Source of the DNA: Lamellibrachia columna
Taxonomy: Eukaryota > Annelida > Polychaeta > Sabellida > Siboglinidae
Direction: 5' to 3'
Length of the DNA: 64,000 nt
Assembly (NCBI GenBank): GCA_963662155.1
Contig: OY759261.1
Coordinates: 40,918,996-40,982,995 of the forward strand
In this document: positions 7,261 through 55,165 of the stretch, piece by piece
How positions within the stretch are numbered: position 1 is the first letter of the stretch
Layout of the letters: each line of letters opens with the position of its first letter
Notes under the pieces: generated by a model
The model's database searches: none
The model's input: the letters and a program-made list of their open reading frames with translations, nothing else
Told to the model about the DNA's origin: nothing
Translations under genes and position numbers: made by a program

Positions 7261-7316
7261 GATAAAACGTGGATTTATCCCCCACAAAGTGTCGATGTCC
7301 GCTGAATCATCTGTAC

Positions 7317-7722
7317 TAATTCCCACTCCCTGTCTTGTACTTATTCCCACTCCCTGTCTTGTACTTATTCCCACTCCCTGTATTGTACTTATTCCCACTC
7401 CCTGTCTTGTACTTATTCCCACTCCCTGCCTTGTACTTATTCCCACTCCCTGTCTTGTACTTATTCCCACTCCCTGTCTTGTACTTATTCCCACTCCCTG
7501 CCTTGTACTTATTCCCACTCCCTGTCTTGTACTTATTCCCACTCCCTGTCTTGTACTTATTCCCACTCCCTGTCTTGTACTTATTCCCACTCCCTGTATT
7601 GTACTTATTCCCACTCCCTGTCTTGTACTTATTCCCACTCCCTGTCTTGTACTTATTCCCACTCCCTGTCTTGTACTTATTCCCACTCCCTGTCTTGTAC
7701 TTATTCCCACTCCCTGTCTTGG
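7317..7722. repeat. 24-bp minisatellite, about 17 copies
   Basis: Direct units of ttattcccactccctgtcttgtac abut without spacers. Because 24 is divisible by three and the unit has few stops, several frames on both strands stay open. These are repeat artefacts, not genes. It lies in the intron between the copy-1 transmembrane and tail exons. Confidence 0.95.
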
Positions 7723-22100: not shown

Positions 22101-23289
22101 TATTGCAATTAAGGCCACTACAATTAATCTAAGTAGAGATTGTGGAAACAAACCTACACAATTTGGCTGGGCAGGTCAGGTGGTTGGTCAACACTACAAC
22201 AAGCAAACTAATATAATATTATGTGAAAAGGGATTAAAATGTAAGATTTCTAGATCATGGAATACATCACCAGAAGTGCACCAGCATTTTATGTTGAAAT
22301 TTCTAATTTTATTTCCGAAAAAGGATTTAACGAATTTAAAATATCATGCAAGAACCATGTAGATGTTACATTAATTCTCTTACATTATGTTTTAATTATA
22401 TTACTTCATTGGCTAGCCTTTATAGATTTTCTCAGGAAAATTACTTTAGAGCTGGCCATTTTGATATTAGAAACAAATCAGTAATAGTGTTCAACATAGT
22501 TTAAACAAAATGTTGTTCAGTATAGTATGCTGGGTACGACAACTGACCATGTGGTATTAAAGGGAAAGGTGGATAACTCAATAATAATCATTACGTACTA
22601 ATGATGGTGTTATAATAATATAAGTTTTATCAATCATAATTCATATTGAAATTTATGCTTTTAATGTAGATCTTTTTCTATATGTAATGTAATTTGATGA
22701 CAGGAACATTCCCAATTTGCTGCATTGTTTGGTTGATACTGTTGATGCTACAACAATCAAAATCATCATTATACATAATTGTTTGAAAAAGTATTTAGTT
22801 TCTGAAACATGAAAATAATTGTTACATTTTAATTACTGTTCTTTTTTAAATGATTATTAGGACTGAAATTTGAATGTGTTTTAAACAGTAATATTAGTTT
22901 AATTAAACATATTTTGTTCATTTAATTCAACGTAGAGATAATACTAGAATATATATTGAAACTAAGAAATTGTAGTGAATTGTTTACATTTAATGTAATT
23001 TGGGGGCGCAAACTTACAAAAAACTTGGCAAATTTTTTGGCTGATTACGTTGATACTATAACAATCAAAATCAGCATTATACTTATATGAAAACATATTG
23101 AATTCGTGAAACATGAGAATAATTACATTTTAATTACAATTCTTTTTATATTAAAGTGAACATTCATAATATGAATGTCTTTTTAAACAGTAATACTAGT
23201 TTTTTATTAATCATATTATGTTCATGTATTTCAATTTATGTCAGAACAACTCAACAAGGAATAGCGTTATATTTATGTATTATACATAT

Positions 23290-23660
23290 AAAACATGGCA
23301 ATAAATGGGACAACCCGGCCAGATCTCTCTGGGGCCTGCAGATGTTCACGTGACTGGACATGGTCCTTGGTCTGCTATTCGGTCATGATCACGTGACTGC
23401 GGCCACGTGACCAGACTATCCTGGGTCTGTATCCAGATAAATGCCGACGAGCCTATCATTCACGCTCCTGGAGCAAGGGTTAGTAGGTGACTGAACGTTT
23501 TATCTGCTCGTGCTGCATGACAAAGTCGTCATGTGCACGTTCACAATCAGCTATGTACAGCGCCCTCTGATTGGTCAGCCTCCATATCGCAGAGTATTGT
23601 GAGCCTCTAATGTTGATTGGCCAGGTATGTTGGTCAGTTGTTGGTTATAAGCTATTCAGT
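23290..23660. repeat. E-box-containing dispersed repeat (module G), copy 1
   Basis: It contains 'ccggccagatctctctgggg', 'gatcacgtgactgcggccac' and 'gtgaccagactatcctgggt'. Other copies lie at 39960, 40985, 41690, 43020 and 44210, and inverted at 53557. CACGTG palindromes recur. Class unknown. Confidence 0.7.
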
Positions 23661-23692
23661 GATACAACAATGCTTCAAATTAATTATATAGA

Positions 23693-24035
23693 TTATATAT
23701 GGAAATTTACATTCCAACATTTAATGTAGTTAATTGTTTGCATTTATTGTAATTTGAGGACATACATTTATCCAATTTGGTGCATTATTTGGTGAATTAT
23801 GTTGATGCTACAACAAATCAAAATCTTCATTATACTTGCATGAAAAAAAATAGTCAACTCGTGAAATGTGCAACATGACATTTTTTCATGCAAGTATAAT
23901 GAAGATTGTCAACAAATTCACAAAATAATGCACCAAATTGGATAAATGTCTGTCTTCAAATTACATTAAATGCAAACAATTCACTACATTAAATGTTGGA
24001 ATGTTAATTTCCATATATTATCTAGTATAATGTTT
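23693..24035. repeat. Large inverted duplication, about 160-bp arms
   Basis: 23693-23853 and 23878-24035 are reverse complements with a ~25-nt spacer and one ~15-nt deletion. Each arm contains a decayed mini-exon unit. Confidence 0.85.
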
Positions 24036-33000: not shown

Positions 33001-33945
33001 ATGTTGTTCATAAACATTACAATGCACGAGTTGTGCGATTTATAATGACAAATATGGTTTGCACGTGTAACACTTCAGTGCTTTAATCTGCATATAATAT
33101 ATTATGTATAAATAAAACCTGAAACAACAGCCACCCTCTACTGTACATTTCTGACATCTTATAAGAAGGTTTATATATCAGATTCGGTTTCTCAATTCCA
33201 GAATATCTGATAAACCAAACGAAGCTAAAACCAAACCAAAACTAAACCATTAAAAATGTTTCAGAGAGTTATGTTGAAAAGATAACTTGATCTGACTTTG
33301 TGAATTGCATTATCTGGGAGGTTTACTTATCTACAACCTGAAGACAGAGCATGCATCTTGCACTTACGACCACTCTGTGTGTCATGAGTTAGAAACTTAT
33401 CCAAAACATATTACTTCAAACACTGAACCAACAATTTGTTTGTAAATTCACAAGTGAAAATATATCATTATGGTTGATGTTCCATTGCGCTGGAAGGCTT
33501 ATTCATAAACATTACAATGCATGAGTCGTGTACATTATATTAATAAAGCTAGTGTAAACGTGGAACGCTTCAGTACTATAATGTAAACATACTATATAAA
33601 TATGTATAAATTAAAACCTGCAATAGCAGCCATATTCCTTTGTACATTTCTGACATCTTATCAGAAGATTTATGTCAGATTTGGTTTCTCAATTCTAGGG
33701 TACCTTATACACTAAGCCTTTAAAAATATTTCAGAGAGTTAAGTAGAAAGGACAACTTGATATGACTTTGGGAACTGCATTATCTGGGAGGTTTACTTAT
33801 TTACAACCATCTTGTACTTGTGTGTCATGGCAGCTAGAAAAGTATCCTAAACCTATTACTTCAAACATTGAATCAACTGTTTGTAAATGTAGATTCACAA
33901 GAGAGTAAATATCACTGTTGTGGTTGTAGTTCCGCAGCACTGGTT
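33000..33945. repeat. Tandem duplication, two units of about 450-490 bp
   Basis: 33000-33495 and 33496-33945 share block after block (cataaacattacaatgca, ttctgacatctta, tttcagagagtta, gcattatctgggaggtttac, attacttcaaacattga) with substitutions and small indels. Confidence 0.85.
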
Positions 33946-34024
33946 GTTTGGAGGTATTTCCTGCTGCAAAAAAACAACATCATTAAAATGGAACGCACAC
34001 GTGTTTGTGTGTGCCTGCGTGCTA

Positions 34025-34125: not shown

Positions 34126-34390
34126 AAGAGGTCAAAGTGCGAAGCAGTCAATGATGGAAGGCAGTGGTGCAACTGAGTTGACTTTCTATATTAACCAACA
34201 CAAGAAGAAAATTAAGTAAGTAAGCAGCATCATTTGTTGAATGGGGTATGTAATTAGGCCTGTGTGTTGTTCCACGATGTTCAATTACTCACCATGTTCA
34301 TGTTGTAGCTGTAGCGCGACGACTGCGACAAACAAGACAAAGTTATTTGATCCTGATACAACAAAACTCTGCTTCGTCTTCTTCCATCAC

Positions 34391-34450: not shown

Positions 34451-35500
34451 CCACATATAAAATGTCACACTTTGGAAAACTAAAACGAACTAAGCAGGCC
34501 AATCTGTAACTTTATAGTAATTAGCTTGGGAATTGAGATGAGAATGTGATGGTGTGTGTGAATAAAAGGACATGAAACAGGTAAAACGCCGGTAGATGAA
34601 TATGAATGGATCAACTACCATACAAATAAACAATTAATCAAATAATTTATTGTAACCCTTCACAACAAGTATAATTAAACAGTAAATATTTATTTACATT
34701 GTGAAATATGTACACCATCAGATATGACTACATAAAATCCATGTACTCGATGTGATGTCACAATATGTTCTCGTTATCTTTCTGAGGACCAAAATTAATT
34801 ACCCTTCCAGTGTCACACGACCCTTTTGTTGATGGTCACATGACAACAGTTTCCTGACTATCCCAGACCAATATATGGTCTGCCACTAAAGGTGGTCTTG
34901 TTCCTAAAATAAGCTCAACCAGTGCACTGGCTCTCATCTAATAACACGGGGTCTCCTAATGCAAGTACTTGTACAGTTAGAACTATACAAAATAAATGTG
35001 CTGATAATAAAAACAGTAAACATACAGTAGAGTGCTTACCGCTTGCATGGGTGGCAGACTTGGATAACAGCATGGCGGTATGTACTGCAACAGTTCCAGA
35101 CACAATTAATTATGCATCAAGACATTAAACTATACAATGTATACATGCCCTATTATGCAAACACCCCCATTTTTCAAGGCCCAATGATGACATAAGATCG
35201 AACATTGTATATTATAATGGCTGATATCAGCAGACTTTGTAATGTTCTGGTGTCCTTTTGACCACATGTGGATGTATTATTAATGGCTGGTAGCCTTAAC
35301 CAAGTCCTTTCTTTGAATCTCTAGCCAATACATATTGATATATGACATGTCCTCCCCATATTTTTGTAAAGTACGTGGTTGATTACGACTACATGACATG
35401 TCCTTGTTTTAGAATGGATACAGCAAATTTGTCAGGTTGATAGATTCCTTCCCTTACCACTAGAACTGTTCTCCTATGTTTGACTCGTAAGTAGTTTTAA

Positions 35501-39268: not shown

Positions 39269-39310
39269 TGGATATGGCTGTGGCCACGGTTGTGGGTTGG
39301 CATATGGAAC
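39269..39310 (-). CDS. Mini-exon, 42 nt: VPYANPQPWPQPYP
   Basis: Acceptor ttgttccttctgtttgcag and donor GTAAGTTCC on the minus strand; 14 codons in phase 0. It is a Pro-rich relative of the next exon upstream (39760), and the flanking introns are also duplicated (39255-39500 versus 39748-39960). Confidence 0.65.
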
Positions 39311-39759
39311 CTGCAAACAGAAGGAACAACATTACACGATACATCAGACACACCATATTATTTCAAAAACTACATGATGTGATGTGTGCTATCACAATGA
39401 AAGCTAATCTCAATAAATTTTAGATTTCTTGAAATGGGCATGACATTTCTTGGAATAAAAATATGGATAATTTAATTATATAATTCACCATTAAATTTTA
39501 ATGATATATGTTCGTGTCATTCTCAATGTTCTTACTAATCAGGCCTTTAGCCAGATATATATATATACATTTCTTTTAATATTAATATTCATGAATGTGT
39601 GTTAAACAGCAATACTATTTTTTATTAATAACATTTGTTTCATGGATTTCATAGTACAGATTATACTAAATAATATATCTTCAAGTGGTAATCATACTAC
39701 TTACAATGTTTAAGTAACAGGTATTGCATCCTAAGCTTAATAAAATGACAGGAACTTAC

Positions 39760-39801
39760 TACGTTTGGCTGTGCGCAGGGTTGTGGGTTTGGATATGGAC
39801 C
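39760..39801 (-). CDS. Mini-exon, 42 nt: GPYPNPQPCAQPNV
   Basis: Acceptor tgttccttgtgcttgcag, donor GTAAGTTCC, phase 0 in and out. It shares the PYxNPQP core with the exon at 39269. Confidence 0.65.
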
Positions 39802-39959
39802 CTGCAAGCACAAGGAACAACATAAAACATGCTTTCAAAAACTACATAATCTGCTGTAAAATGAAAGCTACCTTCAAAAAACTTATAAATTCTCGGGGCG
39901 TGACATTTCTTGGAATAAAACAATATAGATAATTTTATTATTTTATTCACCATTACACC

Positions 39960-40345
39960 AACATGACAATAAATGGGACAGCCCGGCCAGATCTCTCTGG
40001 GGCCAGCTGTGACCCCCAAGGTTAGGCTGTGAGACTCGGATGTTTAGGTGATTGGACATGGTTCTGGGTCTGCTACGTGGTCATTGTCAGATGACTGAGG
40101 CCACATTACCAGACCATCCTGGGTTCTGCAGCAATCTGTGTGCCAAGTCAACCCAAAAAGATTCCGGCCAGCCTATCATTGGTGCAAGACCCGGACGTTA
40201 AAGTGACCGGACATGGTCCTGTGTCAGTTACTCCCTCATGATCATGTGACTGCGGCCACGTGACCAGACTATCCTGGGCCTGCAGCCAGATAAATGTTGA
40301 TTGGCCAGGTATGTTGGTCAGTTGTTCTGTCAAACTATGCAGTGA
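39960..40345. repeat. Module G, copy 2
   Basis: GC-richer repeat with two 'gtgactg(c/a)ggccac(g/a)t' subunits and 'gaccagactatcctgggcct'. It lies between mini-exons. Confidence 0.7.
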
Positions 40346-40467
40346 TACCAATATGCTTCAAATTAGAGATTGTACTAGAATTATATATTATATATATTGA
40401 AAAAAAATTCCTACATTTATTGTAGTGAATTGTTTACATTTAATGTAATTTAAGGAAATAAACTTAC

Positions 40468-40494
40468 CCAATAGTTTGGTGGATTCGGTTGTTG
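40468..40494 (-). CDS. Mini-exon, 27 nt: QQPNPPNYW
   Basis: Flanked by ttgttgtag and GTAAGT; nine codons, phase 0. Confidence 0.65.
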
Positions 40495-40926
40495 CTACAA
40501 CAATATAAAGATCTTTATACTTGTATGACAAAATATTGTATTTGTGAAACATAAAAATAATTATAACATTTTCATTATAGCTCTTGTATTAAAATAAATA
40601 CTCATGAAAGAGATACAAGTCTTAAACAGTAATACGTTTTTATTAGAATTTAACCAATGGGTGTTGCACTGATTTCTAAAAAAAAAATTAGTTCTGTGAG
40701 AAGCATTTAGCTAAATTTTGAGCATTTTTGCTCCAGTAGATTTCGAGCTACGACATAATTCAATCTCATGAACTAATCAACCTATATAAAAATAATTGTG
40801 AAATTGTTCTTTGCAATGTATCTATCACATAACCATAATTAGAACATACATGCTGAGCATTAAGGTGAAAAAATCATTCTGATTTGGCCAGTTATTCTGT
40901 CATAAAATAAGCAGTGCTATAACAAT

Positions 40927-40947
40927 ACTTGATGGATTCTGTTGTTG
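40927..40947 (-). pseudogene. Truncated mini-exon, donor lost
   Basis: CAACAACAGAATCCATCAAG follows a good acceptor (gttgcag), but sequence homologous to the exon end and GTAAGT is missing. A similar truncation lies at 44017-44036. Confidence 0.5.
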
Positions 40948-40984
40948 CTGCAACACTCAAAATCATCATTATACTTCCAGGAAA

Positions 40985-41440
40985 AAATAACCGGACATAT
41001 TCCTGGGTCAGCTAATCGGCTATGATCACATGAATGTGAAAATGTGACGAGACTATACTGGGTTCTGCGGCAATATAACTGCAAAGTTGCCACCAAAAGA
41101 TTCCAGCCAGCCTATCATTGGCTGCAAGACCTGGACGTTTAAGGTCCTTGATTAGCCACTCGGTCATGATCATGTGACTGCTGCCACGTGACCAGACAAT
41201 CCTGGATCTGCAGCCAGAGAAATACCGAACAGCCTATTATTCATGCTACTGGAGCAGCAGGTTGGAAGACGTCTTCTCTGCTGGTGGTGCAAGACAAAGT
41301 GGCCATGCATGGCATTGCACGCACGTTCCCAGTCAGCTTTGTACTAGGGACAGCGCCCTATATTGGTCAGCCACCCTATCTAGCAGTATTATGAACCATG
41401 GAATGTTGGTTTGCCACATATGTTGGTAAGTTTTTCTGTC
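40985..41440. repeat. Module G, copy 3
   Basis: Two internal E-box-like subunits; includes the 'ccagtcagctttgtactagg' and 'tattggtcagccaccctatc' segments shared with 44210-44760. Confidence 0.7.
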
Positions 41441-41483
41441 ATAAACTATGCAGTGATATACTTCAACTTAGAGATTGTACTAG

Positions 41484-41489
41484 AATATA

Positions 41490-41545
<56 letters not shown>
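41484..41545. repeat. (TA)n microsatellite
   Basis: About 30 TA dinucleotides in the intron between mini-exons. Confidence 0.95.
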
Positions 41546-41546
<1 letters not shown>

Positions 41547-41604
41547 TGAAATTACAATGTGGTCAATTGTTTACATTTAATTTAATTTATGGACAGAAAC
41601 TTAC

Positions 41605-41640
41605 CCAAGTTGGTGCATTGTTTGGTGGATACTGCTGTTG
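41605..41640 (-). CDS. Mini-exon, 36 nt: QQQYPPNNAPTW
   Basis: Acceptor ttgattgttgtag, donor GTAAGT, phase 0. Confidence 0.65.
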
Positions 41641-41689
41641 CTACAACAATCAAAATCATCATTACATTTGCCTGAAAACATTTTTAGAC

Positions 41690-41970
41690 CCAGACGTTTA
41701 AGTGACCGCACGTGGTCCTAGGTTAGCTACTCGATCATGATCACATGACTGTTGCCAAGTGACCAGACGATCCTGGGCTTGCAGCCAGAGATATGCCAAC
41801 CAGTCTATGAGTCATGCTGATGGAGCAGGGAGTTGGTATGTGGGTAGACATCTTCTCTATTTTGTTGTAAGTAGCCATGTGACTTGCGCCCATCAGCTAC
41901 ACACTAGGGACACCTCCCTCTATTGGTCAGCCTCCCAATCCAGCATTACTACCTGTCTGTAATGTTGGTT
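41690..41970. repeat. Module G, copy 4 (partial)
   Basis: Shares 'gatcctgggcttgcagccag' and 'tattggtcagcctccc' with the other copies; the first half is missing. Confidence 0.65.
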
Positions 41971-42071
41971 AATATAATATATATATATATATATATCTAT
42001 TGAAATGAAAATTCCTACATTTATTGTGGTGAATTGTCTACAATTAATGTAATTTAAGGACATACACTTAC

Positions 42072-42098
42072 CCAATAGCTTGGTGGATTCTGTTGTTG
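42072..42098 (-). CDS. Mini-exon, 27 nt: QQQNPPSYW
   Basis: Acceptor ttgttgtag, donor GTAAGT, phase 0. Confidence 0.65.
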
Positions 42099-42355
42099 CT
42101 ACAACAATAAAAACATTTTCATACTTGCATGAAAAAGTATTGAATTAGTGAAACATGAAAATAACTGTAATATTTTAATCATAGTTCCTGTTGTATTAAA
42201 ATGAATACTCATGAATGTGATCTGAATTAGTTTTAAACAGTAATAGTTGTCTTTATTGGTGAATGTGAATTCAACCAATGGGTGTTGAAATAAATTTCCC
42301 ACATTTATTATGGTGAATTGTTAACATTTAACGTAATTTAAGGACAGAAACTTAC

Positions 42356-42391
42356 CCAATTTTGTTCATCGTGTGGTGGATTCTGTTGTTG
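42356..42391 (-). CDS. Mini-exon, 36 nt: QQQNPPHDEQNW
   Basis: Acceptor gactgttgtag, donor GTAAGT, phase 0. It is the only unit with acidic residues (DE). Confidence 0.65.
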
Positions 42392-42459
42392 CTACAACAG
42401 TCAAAATAATCACTATTATACTTGAATGAAAAATATTTAAATTGTGCATCACGAAAATT

Positions 42460-42460
42460 A

Positions 42461-42496
<36 letters not shown>

Positions 42497-43010
42497 TATA
42501 TATATACATATATACACACATATATACATACATGCATGCATGCATACATACATTTTGTTGTTGTTGCAAATACTAACGAATCATCATTATGTTGTTCAAC
42601 TATCATTTTGCCTCACGTTGTTATATTATGCTAGAATGATGGATTACAACCACTTGTAATTTTCTATATGCGTCACATTTACTATTATTAACATATTTTT
42701 GCATATACTAACGAATATTCACTATATTGTTCAATTAACAAGTCGTTAGATTGTACTAGATTGCTGGATCAAGACGCCAAGTTGTAATTTTTCATTTTCT
42801 TGATAGCTAGTATTATTAACATAATTGCCAATAATTGCAGCATTATTCCATGCATGACAAGATTACTATAAGTAATCATGGGTGGTTCTCGCAATAAGCC
42901 CCTTGGGGTTTCCAGAGAATCAATCAAATTATTTATGACCATACCTGTAACAACATTGTAAATGAGTAACCAAATAAACTCGCATTGATTGATTGATTGA
43001 TTGATTGATA
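42460..43010. repeat. Microsatellites and unassigned intron
   Basis: (TGTA)n and (CATG)n runs at about 42467-42552 and a (TTGA)n run at about 42984-43008. The DNA between them is AT-rich without recognised content. Confidence 0.8.
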
Positions 43011-43019
43011 CATAAATAC

Positions 43020-43520
43020 ATACATGGCAATAAATAGGATAGCCCAGCCAGACCGCTCTGGGGCCAGCTGTGACACCCAAGGACAGCCTGCAAGACTATG
43101 ATGTTCACTTGAGTGGACGTGTTCGTGGGTCAGCTAATTGGCCATGATCATATGACTGCGTAAACGTGATCAGACTATCCTGGGTTCTGCTGCAATCTAG
43201 AAGCAAAGTTTACCCCAAAAGATTCCATCCAGTCTATCACTGGCTGCAAGACCCAGACATTTAAGTGACCGGACGTGGTCCTAGGTTATATAGCTACTCG
43301 GTCATGATCACGTAACTGTTTCCACATGACCAGACTATCCTGGGCATGTAGCCAGAGAAATGACGACCACCCTATGAGTCATGCTGATGGAGCAGGGGTT
43401 GGTAGGTGGGTAAACGTCTTCTCTATCATGCTGTAAGACAAAGTGGCATGCTCCCGTCAGCAATGTATTGGAGACAGTTCCCTCTGTCGGTCAGCCTCCC
43501 TATCCAGCATTATTACGTTG
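43020..43520. repeat. Module G, copy 5
   Basis: Full-length-looking copy with two E-box subunits and 'gtcggtcagcctccctatcc'. It follows the (TTGA)n run directly. Confidence 0.7.
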
Positions 43521-43602
43521 TAATGCTGGTTACTATTAAAAATTCCTACGTTTATTGTGGTGAATTCTCTACAATTAATGTAATTTAAGGACATAAACAT
43601 AC

Positions 43603-43629
43603 CCAATAGTTTGGTGGATTCTGTTGTTG
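43603..43629 (-). CDS. Mini-exon, 27 nt: QQQNPPNYW
   Basis: Acceptor ttgttgtag, donor GTATGT, phase 0. Confidence 0.6.
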
Positions 43630-44209
43630 CTACAACAATAAAAAGCATAATTATACTTGTATGAACAAATATTGAACTCGCGAAACATGAAAATAAGATA
43701 TGAATTACATTTAAACAATAATACTTTTATTAGGGTCATTCCATGTGAATTCAACTAATGGGTGTTGTGCTGATTTCTTCAATGAAAAGCATGCAACCCA
43801 AATTTGAGCATTTTCGCTACAGTAGATTTCGAGCTACGACGTTATTTATATTTCATAGGTTAATATCTCATGAATTAATTGTTCTTTGCAATGTATATAT
43901 CACATAACCATAACTAGAATATACATGCTGTTGACAGTTAATGTGCATTAAGGTGAAACAAATCATTTGGATTTTGCCAGTTGTTCTGTAATAAACTATG
44001 CAGTGCTACCACAATACTTGGTGGATTCTGTTGTTGCTACTCAAAAATCATCATTATACTTCCATGAAAAATATTGAAATCATGAAACATGAAAATTATT
44101 GTAACATTTTAATTGCAGTTCTTGTATTAAAATGAATATTCATGACTGAAATATGAATATTTAAAAAAAGTAATACTAGTCTTTTATTCATCATATTTTG
44201 TTGATGTTG

Positions 44210-44770
44210 AATAAATTGGACAGCCCAGGAAGACATTTCTGGGGCCAGCTGTGACACCCAAGGATAGGCTGCGAGACCTGGATGTTCAAATGACCAGACA
44301 TCTTCCTGGGTCATCTAACTGGCCATGATCACGACTGCAAAAACATGACCAGAATATCCTGGGTTCAACGGCAGTCTAGCTGCAAACATAGATGACTCCA
44401 AAAGATTCCAGCCAGCCTATCACTGGCCGCAAGACGCAGACTGTTAAGTGAACGGATGTTTAATTGACCAAACGGGGTCCTATGTTAGCTACTCGGTCAT
44501 GATCACCTGACTACTGACACGTGACCAGACTATCCTGGGTCTGCAACAAGAGAAAGGCAGAACAGCCTATTATTCACTCTACTGGAGCAGGAGGTTGGTA
44601 GATGTCTTCTCTGCTGGTGGTGCAAGACAAAGTGGCCATGCATGCACGCTCCCAGTCAGCTATGTACTAGGGACAGCGCCTTCTATTGGTCAACCACCCT
44701 ATCCAGCAGTATTATGAGCCTGTAATGTTGGTTTGCCATGTATGTTTGTAATTTTTTGACCATAAACTAT
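44210..44770. repeat. Module G, copy 6
   Basis: Co-linear with 40985-41440 plus the upstream 'ccagctgtgacacccaagga' part. Confidence 0.7.
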
Positions 44771-44803
44771 GCAGTGATATACATCAGATTAGATATTGTA
44801 CTA

Positions 44804-44953
<150 letters not shown>

Positions 44954-45014
44954 AAATTACAATTCCTACATTTATGGTGAATTGTTTACATTTAATTTAA
45001 GGACATAAACTTAC

Positions 45015-45041
45015 CCAATAGTTTGATGGATTCTGTTGTTG
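45015..45041 (-). CDS. Mini-exon, 27 nt: QQQNPSNYW
   Basis: Acceptor ttgttgtag, donor GTAAGT, phase 0. Confidence 0.65.
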
Positions 45042-46302
45042 CTACAACAATAAAAACATAATTATACTTGAAGGAAAAAATATTGAATTCTTGAAACATG
45101 AGAATTATTATAACATTTTAATTATAGTTCTTATATTAAAATAAATACTCACGAATAAGATATGAATGACTTTTAAACAGTAGTACTTTTTTATTACTAT
45201 CATTCCGTGTGAATTCAATCAATAGGTTAAATAAAAAGCATGAAAAGCTTGTAACCCAAATTTGAGCGTTTTCGCTCCAGTAATGTTCGAGCTACAACAT
45301 TTTTTATATGTCATAGGTTAACGTCTCATGAACTAATCGACCCGTATAAATAAAATTTGGTGGAATTGTTATTTGCAATGTGCATATCACATAACCACAA
45401 TTAGAACATAAATGCTTCTAACAGTTAATGTGCATTAAGGTCAGAAAGCACGACTTGTTCAATAAATCATTAGTGAGAGGGGCTTCCAATTGTGTGCTAA
45501 ATACACATCTCTTAAGTGGTATATGTTTTGTATTTATCCATATCAGTGTTCATGTCAGAGCAACACGACATCTCTCTCTATTAATCTATACAGACACAAA
45601 GATGCTATATGTTGTTACATTTGTTTTATTAATATGCATAATGCGATGCAAACATACATGTAGCAGCGTATTTCAATCTATTCAAGAGAAACACTCTGGT
45701 GGATAGTTTAGAGAACACATTGAATATCGTGCCCGAATGTTCTGGCCAATTATAATAATATAATATATAATAAATAAAATAACTGGGGAACCAGGGTCTG
45801 GCCTCAAGTGTTCCTGTATCTGGTAAAATAACCGGGGAACCAGGGTCTGGCCTCAAGTTTTCCTGTATCTGGTCAAATAACCGGGGAACCAGGGTCTGGC
45901 CTCACGTTTTTCTGTATCTGGTGAAATAACTGGGGAACCAGTGTCTTTAAAAAATGGTTGAGGTCTAAAGGGTTAATATACTTTATTTAACTACGAGAGG
46001 TGTATTTAGCTCACAATTGATGTGTGAAAACCCTCTTGCAAAAAATACAAACTGCTGTAGCTCAAAAACTACTTGACCTAGGATGTTAAAATTTTGGCTA
46101 CTGGTACGTTTGTTTTACCAAGGGTTTTTCCCAAACTGATTCTTAAAAACATGAAGAGATCAATGCAACCAATGTCAGGCATTTTGGTTTACTTTACATG
46201 GAATAACCCATTAATCATATTTTGTTCATGTATTTCAAAATAGAGACTGTACCAGAATATATATTGAAATTTAATTAATTTAAGGATATCAACTAAACTT
46301 AC

Positions 46303-46338
46303 CAAATTGTGTCCACTGTTTGTTGGATTCAGTTGATG
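46303..46338 (-). CDS. Mini-exon, 36 nt: HQLNPTNSGHNL
   Basis: Acceptor cattgttgtag, donor GTAAGT, phase 0. The duplicate is at 52878. Confidence 0.6.
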
Positions 46339-47534
46339 CTACAACAATGAAAAGTATCATAATATTTGTATGAACAAATACTGAATTCATAGAACATGAA
46401 CAAATTATTATAATATTATTATAATATTATAATTATTAAAATTTTAATTAAAAAAATTTAGTATTAAAATGAATATTCATGAAAGGGATATGAATGTATT
46501 ATTAAACAGTGGAGTCGTTCCATGTTAAATCAACCTATGAATGAGTGGCTATACTTTCATGCACACTTATGTAAAATAACTAAACATTTACACCCAAATT
46601 GTGTATGTAATGCCCTATTATGCAAAATTATATGCAAAAAAAGACAGCGGGTGTACCAGGTGAAAAGAAATTGAATAATTTTTGTATATCCAAGTCATTT
46701 CAGCAGCCCATATTTCCTTGTTGCGATACAGGACAGTGTCCAAATTGCTATCCTGTATTATTATAAATACTTGTAATAATATTTTTATTTTAGTTGATAT
46801 CTATTTACTAGATTTTCAGAATAATTAACGATTATTTATCTTTATCAAGTCATATGACCACCAATTTTGTACTGTGCATAGTCCTTAGTTAATAAACAAC
46901 ATAATAAAATGTTTGATATTTTTGGCTGATTTGGAAGAAATATGGGAGAAAGCGCCATCAGGCAGAACAGTGATTTTTCAGCTTCAACATTAACTATGCC
47001 TGTTATGCAATTTATAGCACGGTGAAGTTGGCATTTATTTGTTGTCACCATTCCTTAAAATTCGCTTTATGATTTAAAAAATAAATAATTGTAACACAGC
47101 AATTTTAGCAGCATAATTTTTTTATTCACACATTAATTTCTATGTAAAATATAGTTAACTCCATGCAGCGGTCATCGAGATATCGTCGTTTTACTGCAAG
47201 AAATGCAGGACATGAAGCACAATTGGCAACCATCATGAAATCGCTGTGTGACGGGGTTCTCAACCTCCCACCTGCTTGCGGGACCAATCTCCCACCATTT
47301 TTGAGAACCCGCCTCCCACCTCCGACCAATTTTTAGCTCCAACCTCCCATCTCTCATTTCCTGCGACACCCCTCAAGTGTTAAGATAAACTAATTGCCAT
47401 GTTTTTAATGTTGCCCATGTGAAATCTCTCACTTGCACTACCCAGACAAGGTTTGGCAGGGCAACGCCAATAGCAGTGACAATTTCCTATCCTACAAATT
47501 ATCTACAACTGCCGGTTTCTCAAAGCGTTCGTAC

Positions 47535-47689
47535 CTTTTGATGTTGATCACGTAACTTGGAATTATCCCGGAAAACACGCGTAGCACTGCTAGCAACTGT
47601 ACGTAACTAAGAACTCCTACTCCTACAATGTAATATCCCCACCCCATGGAAATTTTGAAATGAACCATCCCCCAGACCCGTGGGCACGC
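47535..47689 (-). CDS. Candidate transmembrane exon, copy a
   Basis: On the minus strand an open stretch encodes a hydrophobic segment (MGWGYYIVGVGVLSY, then QLLAVL and FSGIIPSYVI) suited to a membrane helix. It is bounded by a weak acceptor (gttgtag) and a donor (aaaag/gtacga). The duplicate at 54200-54342 keeps the frame with several amino-acid changes. A stop follows shortly after the donor in this copy. Its exit phase (2) does not match the phase 0 mini-exons, so its place in the transcript is uncertain. Confidence 0.35.
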
Positions 47690-48171
47690 CTACAACATTT
47701 CAGCCCCTTATGTACAAAAATTACTCTAATATGATAGAACATATATTAGTCACAAACTATTTAATAATATAGACATCAATGGCCAGTCTCCATTTTCTAA
47801 ATAATGCTATGTTCACTTTAGCACATGGAAGTGAAAGGATATGCACACAGTGTCTGAAGATTTAGTAAAGCAAAAGATGACAAAAAGAAACTTCATTTTG
47901 AGAGTTGGTATTTTGATATACAAACAATAACAAATATTGTTAATCATATTCTAAAAACTATACAATGTGCTGTTAAAAGATGGGTGAATGATTTAATTAT
48001 TACACTAATCATTACATTTTACTGATATGTCAAGGAGTTATTAAATGTGAATTTAAGTAAATCTAAATTTTCTTATTTGTAATGTATTCACATATAAAAA
48101 AATACAAATTGTACTAGAACATAGATAATTCATTTACCATGAATTAATAGTGAATGATGAAAGAAACTCAC

Positions 48172-48207
48172 CCAACTTTGCTGAGTAGGTCCACTGGTCA
48201 GTTGTTG
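48172..48207 (-). CDS. Mini-exon, 36 nt: QQLTSGPTQQSW
   Basis: Acceptor ttgattggtgtag, donor GTGAGT, phase 0. The duplicate is at 55130. Confidence 0.6.
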
Positions 48208-48662
48208 CTACACCAATCAAAGCCAATATTACAGTTGTGTGACAACAAATGTAATCTTAGTTTTGGGAAACATTAAATAATTATAACATGTTAATTACAT
48301 TTCCCTGCAATAAATTAATAATAATAAATTAATATATACCATATTAGACCTATTAAGCATACATGCCCTAGTTAGCGTAAACCCCCTTTTTAATAAGGAG
48401 GATCCATAATTATTGTAATTTGACTAGTGTGGAACAACTTAACAGTGTTGAAATCTGGTGTTAAACAGTTTACTTTTCAGTTGTTCTACATTAGTCACCA
48501 AATGACACCACTAGTGTTAAACAGTTAATAGATTCCTTGACGTTTTTTCATGGCCCAATTTTTTCCAAGTGTATTGTACACATACTAGGTTAAATACGGT
48601 TTTACAGGTAAAACTTGTTGCAATTAAGCCTATTAAACTATAACTTGAGAACATAGACTTAC

Positions 48663-48692
48663 CCAAGTTGGCTCCAGATGTCCATTGATGGG
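48663..48692 (-). CDS. Mini-exon, 30 nt: PINGHLEPTW
   Basis: Acceptor gttttattaccag, donor GTAAGT, phase 0. It ends in Trp like most units but starts differently. Confidence 0.5.
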
Positions 48693-49828
48693 CTGGTAAT
48701 AAAACAAGAAAAAAACATGTATGATAAAGATTATGCTCTTGCATTAATTTTCCTGATTACTGAAATATGAGTTACACATCCACAATGTTTCATCGCTATT
48801 TGATGGACTTTTTAAAATATTTAATAATGTCAATAATAATATTTAAAAAAAATTAACAAGTTCCAGATGGCAAGTGGACAAGGAAGCCATTGGCTTATCA
48901 AGAGTCCAACAATTTTCACATCTATGTGTAGCCCGCCATTATCAAATAGCTGTCAATCCTATTTTTAAACATATTCACACTACTAGCATTAACACAATCA
49001 TTTGGCAGCTTGTTCCATTCATTTATCACCCTCTGTGAGAAAGAGTTCTTTGTCATGTCCAACCTACACCACTCCTTAACTAATGCAGCTTTGTGTCCTC
49101 TGGTTCTACTGCCTTCTTTAAGTTTGAAGAACATATTCCTATCAACATCCTCATAATCGTTCACTATTTTAAACACTACTATTTGGTCTCCTCTTAGTCT
49201 CCTGGTCTCTAGTGTTGTCAAATCACATTGTAATAAGCAGCTTTCGTAACTAAGGTCTCTCAATTCTGGAATCATTTTAGTTGCTCTACGTTGTATTTTT
49301 TCTAGCTTGTCTATGTCCTTTTTACGATATGGCCTCCATGCTTGAATACAATATTCTAAATGTGGTCTAACTATTGCTTTGTACAGGGGTACAATTAACT
49401 GTTTCTCCTTATATGTGATAGTTCTCCTAATTAGCCCTAGAACTTGATTTCCTTTCGAAGCAGCAATCAGACATTGCTCTGAAACTTTCATGGCAGTACT
49501 AAATGTTACTCATAAGTCCTTTTCTTGTGTGGTTCTACCTAGTAAAGCAGCCCCCATTTTATATTCTTCGTCCATGTTTCCATGTCTTATGTGTATGATT
49601 TACACTTCCCAAAATTTAATAACATTTGCCATTATTCTGACCATTTAACTAATAACTGTTTAATTAATCTAGATCACCCTGTAAACTTTGTTTATCTGTA
49701 ACATTAGTAACCTTTCTGAAAACGTTTGTGTCATCTGCAAATGTGAGTACTTTGCTAAATATGTCATCTTTCAAGTCATTTATGTATATTAAAAACAGCA
49801 TAGGGCATAATACTGATCCCTGTGGTAC

Positions 49829-51075
49829 AGGCCCTTAGCCAGAGACCCATCTGCCCATCTTGAAGACGATAAAATGTCTTACCACGACGGGTAATATAAA
49901 AATAAAAACCGGAGTTTTCTTTTTATAAGATGAGATTTTTTCATTTGATATTTACTAAGAGTTTCTACACCATGGAAGACATGAAGGCGTGGAAGGGCTT
50001 AGAGGCCTACAATCAGTTGACGTCTGGTTAGATCAGCGATGTGGCGGTTTTCATGGAAAAGGTGTGTGAAGAAAGATTTGGCAGGTTTGGGAAGTTGGGA
50101 GGAGAGTGGAGAACAACAGCGAGGGATAGAGGGAGTAGTCAAAAGTGGTGGATACGGTAGTGAAGGGGAAGTTGACACCCAGTATCGATGCCAACCTCAA
50201 CCAGACTTCAGAGGTAAAGAGGAAAGCAACAACATAATACGTACGTAACGTATAATAAATACTTTGTACATGTCATATGTGTGAACATGTAAGTGTGTGC
50301 ATATGAATTCTTTCAGATCTTTAGAAATTGGAATGAGCCAAATACAATAAAAAGTATATTCCAGTTTAATAGCTGAATAATAATAATAATACATTATTTG
50401 CATCAAACCAACCATGTTTCTCTTCTGAAGTTCATAATTATGTTTAATAGAAGTTCCAATCATACCGCTAGAAAATTACTTGCATAAACTAGCATACAGA
50501 ATGTGGTAAAAATTTGAATTCCGAAGAAAAAAGCCGGATTATCGCGCGTGCAGAAACCTGTCCCATTACCATAGGCCATGGCTACTCCCACCATTGTCCC
50601 AGGCTGATTTGTCCGTGGGTCGAGTAGTCCGAGCACCAAATTCTTATTGCTTTTTGTCCAATAGGCAATACTGAATCTGGATGGTTGCTGTTTTATCAAA
50701 GAAGTAATATTTCAATGTGTTACTTTCAAAACCAATTATAATACTGAGCGCTATATCTTTTATTGTTATGTGTTGTCTTGTTTTACACTTAGTGTCAAAC
50801 ATTTGATTTTGAGTCTGACTGTAAATTAATCATATTTGTTCATATTAGACATATTTGCACACATGTACTTTAAGATGCTTCAAATATTACTTATATGCTT
50901 ATATATTTAAAATAAAGTTTCAAGTTACTTTTTCATGAACCTTCATGTGTTGGCTCTTCTTCTATTCAGTAATACTGTGCAGGTGTTAACGCCAACCTCG
51001 CTGCACAGCTAGTAAGACTTGATTGGGCCAATCAATAATGGTTAAACCAGACTCGGCCTGCCATTGAAAAAAAAC
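49829..51075. mobile_element. 1.25-kb insertion in LINE-A, class unknown
   Basis: It starts aggcccttagccaga and ends with eight A before cccac. A 15-nt match to its start occurs at 39541. The A-run suggests retroposition, but no target duplication is evident. It contains the candidate exon at 50480-50687. Confidence 0.5.
50480..50687 (-). CDS. Candidate exon with a hydrophobic segment
   Basis: Minus-strand frame with an acceptor (ctttgataaaacag) and donor (gcaa/gtaatt). It encodes a polar part with GNGTGFCTRDN and a hydrophobic end (FFFGIQIFTTFCMLVYA). No family was recognised. It could be an exon of a four-helix-type membrane protein carried by the insertion, or a chance frame. Confidence 0.3.
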
Positions 51076-51519
51076 CCCACTCAGAACAGATTTCCAGTTT
51101 CAAATCTCACCATCTACTATTACTCTCTGTCTTCTGTGTGTAAGCCACTCTTCTATCCAGTTGATTACATCATTACCTATACCATGGGTTTTAGTTTAAG
51201 TAACAACCTTTGACGTGGCAGTTTATCGAAAGCTTTCTGAAAATCTAAGTAGACAACATCCACTGGAGACCCGTCACCTACCGACTTTGTAATTCCTTCC
51301 AAAAAACATAACATATTGGCTAGACACGAGCTTGCTTTTAGGAACCCGTGTTGAGATGTATTTATTAATTTATGTTATACAAGGAATTCCACCATGTGGT
51401 CTCTAATTAATGTTTCGAGTAATTTACATACAAATTATGTTTAACTCACTGGTCTGTAATTTCCTGGCTTGTTCCTCGATCCCTTCTTAATAGCGGTGTA
51501 ATGTTTGCTTCTTTCCATT

Positions 51520-52232
51520 ATTGCTTTGTAATGATTTATTTGTACCCTGGAGAGAGCACCCAGTGACTTCCTAACAGGGTCATTCCATTTGAAATCAACC
51601 AACACAATTCTTGAGCCCCTGTAATTTTAATGAAATTTGGTACACATATTGGAACTGTTGGGAAATGTACCTTCGCAACATTTCTGACTAGGGTAAAGTC
51701 TTGGCTTTATTTAAGACCAAACTAAGCACTCTATGACCATAGGTGTCAAGTTGTAATGCGACAATTGTGTGAAAATAGCCAAACACTCACTTAAAATTGT
51801 TTTATCTCAAATGGAATTGACCCTATTCTGAAATGGAATATCCATAATTTGAAATGGAATTGACCTTTTCTGGAAACAAATTTCTAAGTGGAATAATTTT
51901 TTTTTGCCTTTTTTAGAAATGGAAAATCACTGTCAGTAAAGGTATGGAATAAGACCAACTGCACTTGGCTGTTCACGATTCGCTTGATTCTGCACTCTAG
52001 TGTCTCAGGAAATTGTTTAACCCATCATGTTAATAAACTAACCTTCATAAATCAGTAAATAAAATACAATATAAATATTGAAAATTCCAATCAAACTATC
52101 ATCGTAGGATACTTAATTTAATTTAAAACAAATTAGCAGAGTAGTTAGCAGAAAGCAGTATTTGCAGTAGCACTGTTTTGGGAATTATTGTGTGGTTTTT
52201 CAAGTTCTGCTTAACAAAAATACCAATAATAA
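51520..52232. other. AT-rich stretch, no gene recognised
   Basis: Contains a fragment (51583-51650) of the 'gggtcattcca' repeat also seen at 43735 and 45200. Confidence 0.4.
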
Positions 52233-52877
52233 TAATATAATATATAATAAATAAAATAACTGGGCAACCAGGGCCTGGCCTAATATTTTCCTGTATCTGG
52301 TGAAATAACTGGGCAACCAGGGCCTGGCCTAATATTTTCCTGTATCTGGTGAAATAACTGGGCAACCAGGGCCTGGCCTAATGTTTTCCTATATCTGGTG
52401 AAATAACTGGCGAACCAGGGTCTGGCCTAATGTTTTCCTATATCTGGTGAAATAACCGGGGAACCAGGGTCTGGCCTCACGGTTTCCTGTATCTGGTGAA
52501 ATAACTGGCGAACCAGTGTCTTTTAAAAATGGTTGAGGTCTAAAGGGTTAATATACTTTATTTAACTACTAGAGGTGTATTTAGCTCACAATTGATGTGT
52601 GAAAACCCTCTTGGAAAATTCAAACTGCTTTAGCTCAAAAACTACTTGACCTAGGATGCTAAAATTCTGGCTACTGGTACATTTGTTTTACCAAGGGCTT
52701 TTACCAAACTGATTCTTAAAAAACATGAAGAGATCAATGCAACCAATGTCAGGCATTTTGGTTTACTTTATATGGAATAACTCATTAATCATATTTTGTT
52801 CATGTATTTAAAAATAGAGACTGTACCAGAATGTATATTGAAATTTAATGTAATTTAAGGATATCAACTAAACTTAC

Positions 52878-52913
52878 CCAATTTTGTCCATTGTTTGTTG
52901 GATTCTGTTGATG
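52878..52913 (-). CDS. Mini-exon, 36 nt: HQQNPTNNGQNW
   Basis: Acceptor cattgttgtag, donor GTAAGT, phase 0. Duplicate of 46303 with four residue changes and no break. Confidence 0.6.
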
Positions 52914-53556
52914 CTACAACAATGAAAAGTATCATAATACTTCTATGAACAAATACTGAATTCATAGAACATGAACAAATTATTATAATATTTTAATTAC
53001 AAAATTGTTTTGTATTAAAATGAATATTCATGAATGGAATATGAATGTATTATTAAACAGTAGAGTTGTTCCATGTTAAATCAGCCTGTGAATGAGTGGC
53101 TATTCTTTTTTGAACACATATGTAAAAGAACTAAGCATTTACACCCAAATTGTGTATGTAATGCCCTATTATGCAAAATGCTATGCAAAATTCAAGAATT
53201 ACAGGGAGAAGGACTTATTTCCTTGTTGCAATACAGGACAGTGTCCAAATTGCTACCCTGTATTGTCAGGAATACTTGTAATAATGTTTTTATTTTAGTT
53301 GATATCTATTTACTATATTTTCAGAATAATTCATGATTATTCATCTTTAAACTTTTAGCTGTTTGTATATTTTACGAATTTCAGGAAAATGAGAATGTGG
53401 GACAAGTCCTATGACCACCGTGTTTGTACTGTGCATAGTCCTTTGTTTGTAAACAACATATAAAAATGTTTGATTTTTTTTGCTGATTTGGGAGAAATAT
53501 AGGAGAAACCGCCATCAGGCAGAACAGTGATTTTTCAGCTTCAACATTAACTAGGG

Positions 53557-53800
53557 AGGGCTGGACAACCAGAGGGATGCAGGCCCAAGGATTGTCTAGT
53601 CACTTGGCGGCAGTCACGTGATCACGATCAAGTAGCTGGCCCAGAACCATGTCCGGTCACGTGAATATCCAGGCTTCGCAGTCAGCCCTCTCAGTGTCAC
53701 AGCTGGCCCCAGAGAAAATCGACCGGGCTGCCCCTTTTCGCCAAGTTTATAATAAATACTGCTCATTTCCTACCAATGTGTTTGTGTTGTTCTGTCATAA
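53557..53800 (-). repeat. Module G, inverted copy inside segmental duplication unit 2
   Basis: Reverse orientation of the other copies. Unit 1 is uninterrupted here (47000-47020), so this is a later insertion. 'aact' flanks both sides, possibly as microhomology. Confidence 0.7.
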
Positions 53801-54199
53801 ACTATGCCTTTTATACAATTTATAGCATTATGAAGTTATTTGTTGTCACCATTCCTTAAAGTTCGCTTTATGATTTAAACAATAAATAATTGTAACATAG
53901 CAAATTTAGCAGCATACTTTCTTCATTCACACATTCATTTCTGTATAAAATATAGTTAATTCCATGCAGCGGTCATTGAGATATCGTCATTTTACTGCAA
54001 GAAATGTAAGACTTGAAGCACCATTGGCAACCACCATGAAATCGCTGTGTGATTGGGTTCTCAACCTCCCATCTCCCACCTGTTTGCGGGACCAATCTCT
54101 TGCACTACCTAGACAAGGTTTTTTAGGGCAATGCCAAGCAGTGACAATTTCCTACCCCACAAATTGTCTACAACTGCCAGTTTCACAAAGCGTTTGTAC

Positions 54200-54342
54200 C
54201 GTTTGACATTGATCACATAACTCGGAATAATCCCGGAAAACACGCATAGCACTGCTAGCAATTGTGCGTAACTAAGAACTCCTACTCCTACAATGTAATA
54301 TCCCCACCCCATGGGAATTTTTAAATGAACCATCCCCCAGAC
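54200..54342 (-). CDS. Candidate transmembrane exon, copy b
   Basis: Paralogue of 47535-47689 with GWGYYIVGVGVLSYAQ and FSGIIPSYVINVKR. The frame stays open past the donor (caaacg/gtacaa). The acceptor (gttgtaag) is weak. Confidence 0.35.
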
Positions 54343-55129
54343 CTTACAACATTTCAGCCCCTTACATACAAAAATGACACTAATATGATAGAACATACAT
54401 TAGTCACAAACTACTTAATAATATAGACATCAATGGCCAGTCTCCATTTTCTAAATAATGTTATTTTCACTTTAGCACAGGGGAAGTGAAAGGATATACA
54501 CGTAGTGTCCGAAGATTTAGGACAGCAAAAGATGACAAAAGAAACTTCATTTTGAGGGTTGGCATTTTGATAATACAAACAATAACAACATTTTAATCAT
54601 ATTCTAAAAAGCTATACAATATCTGATAACATGCAATGTGCCATTAAAAGGATGAGTGAATGATTTAATTATTACACTAATCATTACATTTTCATTATCT
54701 GTCTAGGTGTTATTAAATATGAATTTAAATAAATAAAAATGTTCTAATTTGTATTGCATTCACATATTCCAAAATATAACACTAGAACATAGATACTTCA
54801 TTTACCGTGAATTGGTATTGAATGTATTAATTACTATATGCTGTATTCGACCTATTAAGTGTACATGCCCTAATTAGCATACACCCAGCAGCAGGATGCA
54901 TAGTTATTGTAAATTGACCAGTGTGGAACTTAAGTGTCGCCATCTGATGTTAAACAGTTTGCATAACTTTTCAGTTGTTCCACACTAGTCACCAAATGAC
55001 ACTTCTAGTGTGAAACAGTTACCTAACTGTCTAGATAATTTTTTTCAAAAATATAAATTGCACTAGAACATAGATAATTCATTTACCATGAATTAATATT
55101 GAATGTATAATCTCATGACAGAACCTTAC

Positions 55130-55165
55130 CCAACTTTGCTGAGTAGGTCCATTGGTCGGTTGTTG
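55130..55165 (-). CDS. Mini-exon, 36 nt: QQPTNGPTQQSW
   Basis: Acceptor ttgattggtgtag, donor GTAAGG, phase 0. Duplicate of 48172 with two residue changes. Confidence 0.55.

What the first reader, a model, noticed from the sequence alone, without database searches (positions are those of the whole stretch)
39269..55165. Exploded mini-exon array encoding Q/N/P-rich peptides on the minus strand
What looks like repetitive junk is an array of intron/mini-exon units. I find 13 units of 27, 30, 36 or 42 nt, each directly after an AG acceptor (mostly ttgttgtag) and before GTAAGT, GTGAGT, GTATGT or GTAAGG. All are open, phase 0 and multiples of three, with peptides like QQQNPPNYW, QQQYPPNNAPTW, HQQNPTNNGQNW and VPYANPQPWPQPYP. 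Lengths vary in whole codons while introns vary freely, as selection on a protein would produce. Symmetrical phase would let any subset be spliced in or out, so one gene could make many length variants of a low-complexity tail. I know of no described family that matches.
Basis: partly seen in the sequence, partly recalled or inferred. Interest (0 to 1): 0.92.

Follow-up and report, generated by a model that had tools for sequence, protein, structure and literature searches.

The report
Gene with seventeen in-frame mini-exons
This stretch of a (likely animal) genome holds a chain of tiny reading-frame pieces, each flanked by splice signals and each a whole number of codons long, that likely belong to one gene whose protein tail would be put together from up to seventeen small removable parts, a build known from blood-fluke secreted proteins, aphid gall proteins and milk caseins.

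Summary
All 13 units exist at the stated coordinates. In a filtered scan, 11 of the 13 are among 14 open codon-multiple mini-exons found, against a mean of 1.07 and a maximum of 5 in 200 shuffles. They belong to a longer predicted gene: three more 3' exons end in a stop codon at 33,895, and four more upstream of the window match a paralogue 2.6 Mb away (locus A) in order and phase. Seventeen consecutive exons are phase 0 and codon-multiple.

Eight exon pairs shared by the two paralogues carry no frame-breaking indel where their flanking introns predict 11.5 (P about 1e-5), which supports a real reading frame. Amino-acid conservation is not shown: dN/dS is 0.65 between paralogues (not significant) and 1.8 among units. 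Units also decay, so the array turns over.

A CARD domain lies about 3 kb upstream of the first of these exons, same strand; its splice link is unproven and its donors are weak.

In type this resembles schistosome micro-exon genes and caseins. No signal peptide was seen and one database search found no sequence relative. Expression and alternative splicing are untested; the genome-wide search answered once.

The parts
55130..55165 (-). mini-exon QQPTNGPTQQSW (36 nt)
   Evidence: homologous exon in paralogue A at 38341972
52878..52913 (-). mini-exon HQQNPTNNGQNW (36 nt)
51960..51989 (-). relic copy of the upstream NQ exon (NQANREQPSA, 30 nt) with weak donor GTTGGT, likely unused
48663..48692 (-). 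mini-exon PINGHLEPTW (30 nt)
48172..48207 (-). mini-exon QQLTSGPTQQSW (36 nt), block-duplicate of 55165
46303..46338 (-). mini-exon HQLNPTNSGHNL (36 nt), block-duplicate of 52913
45015..45041 (-). mini-exon QQQNPSNYW (27 nt)
44008..44034 (-). decayed unit, donor GTAGCA
43603..43629 (-). mini-exon QQQNPPNYW (27 nt, GTATGT donor)
42356..42391 (-). mini-exon QQQNPPHDEQNW (36 nt)
42072..42098 (-). mini-exon QQQNPPSYW (27 nt); a second GT 6 nt further on would add VS in frame
41605..41640 (-). mini-exon QQQYPPNNAPTW (36 nt)
40920..40946 (-). decayed unit, donor ATAGCA
40468..40494 (-). mini-exon QQPNPPNYW (27 nt)
39760..39801 (-). mini-exon GPYPNPQPCAQPNV (42 nt)
39269..39310 (-). mini-exon VPYANPQPWPQPYP (42 nt)
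35040..35084 (-). mini-exon YIPPCCYPSLPPMQA (45 nt); in paralogue B a run of 12 copies of 45 nt
34293..34322 (-). mini-exon SSRYSYNMNM (30 nt)
33895..33963 (-). terminal coding exon QEIPPNNQCCGTTTTTVIFTLL-stop (69 nt)
22138..23863 (-). relic array of 4 unit-like sites (the weakest at E 0.004), each broken by eye: lost donor, stop, or off-codon length; a close copy lies in paralogue B at 39.752-39.753 Mb

Best explanation
The window holds the 3' part of a likely protein-coding gene on the minus strand whose predicted coding sequence contains 17 consecutive phase-0, codon-multiple exons of 27-51 nt, 15 of them in the window, encoding a tail rich in Pro, Gln, Asn and Trp. The array likely grew by local duplication of exons together with stretches of their introns and by duplication of a block of several kilobases, and copies are lost as donor sites decay. 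Because each exon begins and ends between codons, a duplicated, lost or skipped unit would change the tail length without breaking the frame. That would be the mechanism: splicing and unit turnover would set the number of repeated motifs, three of which read PPxY, the WW-domain ligand motif (recalled). Shown from sequence: the exons, phases, splice signals, paralogues, frame conservation and decay. Inferred: transcription, use of each exon, exon skipping, and ligand binding.
For: 13 units plus three 3' exons ending in a stop. One open frame runs through the chosen exons from the first 32-nt exon to the stop. Paralogues A (38.33-38.36 Mb) and B (39.74-39.77 Mb) lie on the same contig. Eight A-D exon pairs, 340 nt: flanks predict 14.5 indels, 11.5 of them frame-breaking; one indel of 3 nt is seen, P about 1e-5. 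All eight are open in the predicted frame in both paralogues; each other frame has a stop in some of the eight in both. In B the 45-nt exon has expanded to 12 copies, a codon multiple. Shared intron tracts and block duplication. PPxY 3 observed, 0.44 expected, P 0.009, but the copies are not independent.
Against: No transcript or protein evidence. Purifying selection on amino acids is not shown: A-D dN/dS 0.65 over five exons (P 0.24) and 1.81 among 11 units. Over eight A-D exons, synonymous and nonsynonymous sites both diverge more than locally aligned flanks (P 0.012 and 0.041), though local alignment biases the flanks low. The no-stop test on the eight exons is weak (P 0.07). In B's 12-copy run the other two frames are open too. 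Paralogue A has one frame-broken 29-nt unit; of five CPY-type copies one has a GC donor and one none; its counterpart of the SSR exon lacks the D donor, with a weak in-frame one further on (by eye). Exons were picked in part because they look intact in both paralogues, which inflates the frame test. The 5' end is unresolved.
Confidence: 0.72

Rival explanations
1. The mini-exons are the tail of a CARD adaptor: the CARD exon at C1:40,992,064-40,991,768 (about 9 kb beyond the upstream edge of the window) would splice into the first 32-nt exon, giving a predicted 332-aa CARD protein with a modular tail.
For: CARD is clear (PF00619 E 6e-15; nearest solved relatives of the near-identical P0001 are RAIDD and Apaf-1), on the same strand and upstream. 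A remnant of the same exon start lies at the matching place in paralogue A. Two phase-2 donors exist and phase 2 is what the first 32-nt exon needs; that exon has an acceptor-like pyrimidine tract (by eye).
Against: Those two donors score -6.45 and -2.43, against +2.0 to +7.5 for the 11 donor types of the accepted exons that were scored. The CARD frame ends in its own stop after 99 aa, and P0001 is 99 aa too. No CARD was found in the stretch of paralogue A, which keeps the tail exons. An in-frame ATG 8 nt before the first 32-nt exon would give an independent start, for a 246-aa protein.
Confidence: 0.35
2. The array is a decaying relic: a once-used gene whose units still look like exons because they are recent duplicates, and which is no longer translated.
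For: dN/dS not distinguishable from 1 between A and D, several decayed units in D, A, B and the 22-24 kb copy. Retroelement ORFs sit between exons.
Against: No frame-breaking indel in 340 nt where 11.5 are predicted. The 16 in-window exons of the D model are open in one frame and carry AG and GT splice sites.
Confidence: 0.18
3. The units are a transposable element or a spliced non-coding RNA whose exons are open by chance.
For: Units share stretches of intron as well as exon.
Against: A 101-nt unit query found 16 places, all within 2.7 Mb of one contig, not dispersed (that search scores only the best candidates). The frame is kept against the indel rate. Seven exon types share the phase, six of which the unit profile does not hit.
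Confidence: 0.06

Closest known systems
Schistosoma micro-exon genes (MEG)
   Same: Most of the coding region is very small symmetrical exons, mostly multiples of three, between long introns; dN/dS above 1 for some mature regions (passages of PMC10526429 and PMC4350168). One VAL gene there (VAL-6) carries a MEG-like portion.
   Different: MEGs are secreted with a signal peptide and mostly 15-bp exons. Here the symmetrical exons are 27-51 nt, the tail is P/Q/N/W-rich, and neither predicted start shows a hydrophobic leader by eye. No direct sequence comparison with MEGs was made.
Alpha-s1 and alpha-s2 casein genes, CSN1S1 and CSN1S2 (SCPP family membership recalled)
   Same: Fragmented coding region with many small exons, several of 24 bp, formed by exon duplication, with exon skipping (passages of PMC12470106). 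P/Q-rich character and phase 0 are recalled.
   Different: Caseins have a signal-peptide exon; none was seen here. Sequence was not compared directly.
Aphid bicycle genes
   Same: Many unusually small internal exons, nearly all of one phase; fast evolution (passages of PMC9168663).
   Different: Bicycle internal exons are phase 2, many proteins with signal sequences and CYC motifs; here the exons are phase 0.
Titin PEVK region (recalled; only a search listing seen)
   Same: Strings of small in-frame exons that set the length of a disordered segment by splicing.
   Different: A giant muscle protein; no sequence relation tested.

Membership tests
Schistosoma MEG | most of the coding sequence in small symmetrical exons | tested here: met
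   17 consecutive phase-0 codon-multiple exons, 600 of 733 predicted coding nt
Schistosoma MEG | N-terminal signal peptide / secretion | tested here: inconclusive
   no hydrophobic leader seen by eye at either predicted start; the true 5' end is unresolved and no signal-peptide program was run
Schistosoma MEG | sequence homology to a MEG family | tested here: inconclusive
   concatenated tail: 51 candidates, none at E <= 0.001; no direct comparison with MEGs was made
SCPP / casein | signal-peptide exon followed by short phase-0 exons | tested here: inconclusive
   short phase-0 exons met; no signal-peptide exon seen by eye in the stretches read
bicycle genes | internal exons in phase 2 | tested here: not met
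   17 symmetrical exons in phase 0
bicycle genes | CYC motifs | not tested
   no motif search was run
CARD protein | CARD domain in the same protein | tested here: inconclusive
   CARD present upstream but the splice link is unproven
any of the above | spliced transcripts and alternative splicing | not testable with these tools
   no RNA data available

The most novel reading that the evidence does not exclude
A CARD innate-immunity or apoptosis adaptor carries a tail built from a turning-over array of phase-0 mini-exons, so that the animal tunes the number of PPxY/Trp motifs, and hence the valency for WW-domain partners, by exon skipping and by unit copy number. It would be another invention of the micro-exon strategy, inside the cell rather than at a host-parasite surface.
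Probability: 0.15. Interest if true: 0.85.

Novelty: new variant of a known kind. Interest (0 to 1): 0.58.

Why it matters
Genes made largely of symmetrical micro-exons are unusual, and their short exons are hard for automatic annotation (said for MEGs in PMC10526429). A family with intact, expanding and decaying copies in one 2.7-Mb stretch would let one watch how such genes arise. It would also test whether phase-0 symmetry is kept because it makes unit gain and loss harmless, or because skipping is used. If the CARD link holds, it would tie the strategy to innate signalling.

Tried and rejected
Chance motif matches: rejected for the array as a whole by shuffles, although 2 of the 14 hits there look like chance.

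Positive selection: a first count of exon against flank divergence looked like faster exons (59 of 298 against 117 of 785, P 0.053). Synonymous sites are raised too and local alignment lowers flank divergence, so I do not claim it. Among units nonsynonymous differences exceed synonymous ones (Fisher P 0.005), but that counts all pairs of 11 related units, so it is no real test; 8 of the 11 are from the window, 2 from A and 1 from B, and the QQPT, PING, GPY and VPY units were left out.

Further coding exons upstream of the CARD in the A-D collinear block: an alignment and a tblastx listing (cut at about 60 rows, with two repeat-rich ranges and rows with stops left out) gave repeats, retroelements and short matches, apart from the CARD start and the first 32-nt exon.

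More CARD copies within 184 kb around the window: none at E <= 1. The CARD ORF has one near-identical protein in the database, P0001, at 98%. The concatenated tail found none at E <= 0.001.

Organism: not identified. The searches for COX1 and SSU rRNA did not complete. That it is an animal is inferred from the CARD domain, the retroelements and the gene structure.

Literature: seven searches. 'CARD domain', 'glutamine-rich', 'mini-exons', 'invertebrate' (at least 3 of 4) gave 0 papers. Only passages were read, of PMC10526429, PMC4350168, PMC9168663 and PMC12470106.
Full report
What was checked. The window is C1:40,918,996-40,982,995 of an 880-Mb, 30-contig genome. The simple motif also turns up by chance there, so a filtered control was run. 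With a pyrimidine-tract requirement there are 14 open codon-multiple mini-exons on the minus strand of 39.2-55.3 kb out of 26 AG..GT pairs; the plus strand has 4 of 8; 200 dinucleotide shuffles give a mean of 1.07 and a maximum of 5. Listed one by one, the 14 are 11 of the 13 units, one alternative end of unit 42,098, and two chance-looking hits; the units at 55,165 and 48,207 fail the filter. The units are mostly homologous to one another, so this is not 13 independent coincidences; the point is that an array is there.

More of the gene. A profile of the units found further copies in the window (a relic array at 22.1-23.9 kb) and at two other places on the same contig: A at 38.33-38.36 Mb and B at 39.74-39.77 Mb. 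Comparing A with D (the window gene) exposed further collinear exons. Downstream they are YIPPCCYPSLPPMQA (45 nt, 35,084-35,040), SSRYSYNMNM (30 nt, 34,322-34,293) and a terminal exon QEIPPNNQCCGTTTTTVIFTLL-stop (33,963-33,895). Upstream, beyond the window, they are NQATRERIQPSV (36 nt at C1:40,986,960), MRPPPSAPQVTHEIPRQ (51 nt at 40,987,987) and two 32-nt exons (40,988,520 and 40,988,793). Read together they give one open frame to the stop. Seventeen exons in a row are phase 0 and codon-multiple, 600 of 733 nt; the two 32-nt exons are not. One intron of the model holds a run of N, so an exon there could have been missed.

Is the frame real? Eight exon pairs between A and D were compared (340 nt). 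In 1,124 aligned flank bases there are 48 gaps, 38 of them not a multiple of three. That rate predicts 14.5 indels and 11.5 frame-breaking ones in the exons. One indel of 3 nt is seen and no frame-breaking one (Poisson P about 1e-5). All eight are open in the predicted frame in both paralogues; each of the other two frames has stops in some of the eight. The stop test alone is weak (P 0.07). There is ascertainment: exons were chosen partly because they look intact. A ninth pair was left out of the test: the counterpart of the SSR exon in A lost the D donor (a weak in-frame donor lies further on, by eye). One A unit is 29 nt and so frame-broken. Of five CPY-type copies in A, three have GT donors, one GC and one none. 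In B the 45-nt exon is a run of 12 copies; the predicted frame is open through it, but so are the other two frames.

Selection. dN/dS is 0.65 for five A-D exons (13.5 synonymous and 31.5 nonsynonymous differences, Fisher P 0.24) and 1.81 over all pairs of 11 units, which are not independent. The two block duplicates have 6 nonsynonymous and 0 synonymous differences. Over eight A-D exons pN is 0.213, pS 0.269, and locally aligned flanks 0.160. So the frame and the splice signals look maintained while the amino-acid letters drift freely or nearly so. Positive selection is not claimed.

Turnover. Self-comparison shows shared intron tracts beside the exons, and a block of several kilobases duplicated in pieces (about 55.4-52.3 against 48.5-45.8 kb, 78-87% identical). 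Two units in the array have broken donors (GTAGCA, ATAGCA; scores -2.5 and -6.0 against +4.9 for the standard TGG|GTAAGT), and the 22-24 kb copy looks dead.

The CARD. About 3 kb upstream of the first 32-nt exon, on the same strand, lies a 99-codon frame with a CARD (Pfam 6e-15; PDB relatives of P0001 are RAIDD and Apaf-1). The start of that exon is recognisable at the matching place in A, where repeats follow in place of the rest. The first 32-nt exon needs an incoming phase of 2, and two GT sites near the end of the CARD frame supply it (one of them inside the stop codon), but both are poor donors. A nearby in-frame ATG allows an independent start. I put the CARD link at 0.35.

Mechanism. 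The most likely reading is a coding gene with a P/Q/N/W-rich, presumably disordered tail whose length is set by which mini-exons exist and are spliced. Phase-0 symmetry makes gain, loss or skipping of a unit frame-neutral; that much follows from the sequence. That the cell uses skipping is inferred. Three PPxY motifs in the D tail (0.44 expected, P 0.009, not independent) suggest WW-domain ligands; PPxY also occurs in A's predicted exons. PPxY as a WW ligand is recalled knowledge.

Known kinds. Schistosome micro-exon genes (PMC10526429, PMC4350168; passages) have the same architecture, and dN/dS above 1 for some mature regions. Caseins (PMC12470106; passages) have many small exons, several of 24 bp, with exon duplication. 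Bicycle genes (PMC9168663; passages) have uniform phase, but phase 2. The sequence here matched no protein at E <= 0.001 in one search, and a signal peptide, found in MEGs, caseins and many bicycle proteins, was not seen. Hence 'new variant of a known kind'.

Limits. No RNA data; species unknown; genome-wide copy number unknown because the genome search answered only once; no sister species; the donor scores use approximate recalled frequencies and cover 11 donor types of the accepted exons.

Noticed in passing
window 37,210-38,682 (+); 57,130-58,348 (-); 48,922-49,509 (-): Reverse-transcriptase-type ORFs of non-LTR (CR1-like, recalled) elements on both strands, some in introns of the mini-exon gene; only the first was scanned (RVT_1 E 4.7e-33), the others judged by likeness to it.
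   Followed up: partly
window 59,399-60,817 (-): 472-aa open frame whose C-terminus looks like a hAT transposase (recalled) but no Pfam match at E 0.001.
   Followed up: partly
L009, C1:40,992,064-40,991,768 (-): Intact 99-aa CARD-only frame; a 98% identical protein cluster P0001 lists three members on one 210-kb contig of another source, hinting at further CARD copies.
   Followed up: partly
C1:39,768,091-39,767,553 (-), locus L019: In paralogue B the 45-nt exon is a tandem run of 12 copies, many of whose junctions repeat an acceptor-like TTGTTGCAG.
   Followed up: partly
window 7,312-7,721 and 31,017-31,571: Minisatellites of 24 nt x17 (open in several frames) and 29 nt x19.
   Followed up: no
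window introns near 44.7-44.2, 43.5-43.0, 41.95-41.7, 41.5-41.0, 40.3-39.97 kb (-): A shared intron segment with an internal repeat travels with the units; whether it is a mobile element was not tested.
   Followed up: partly
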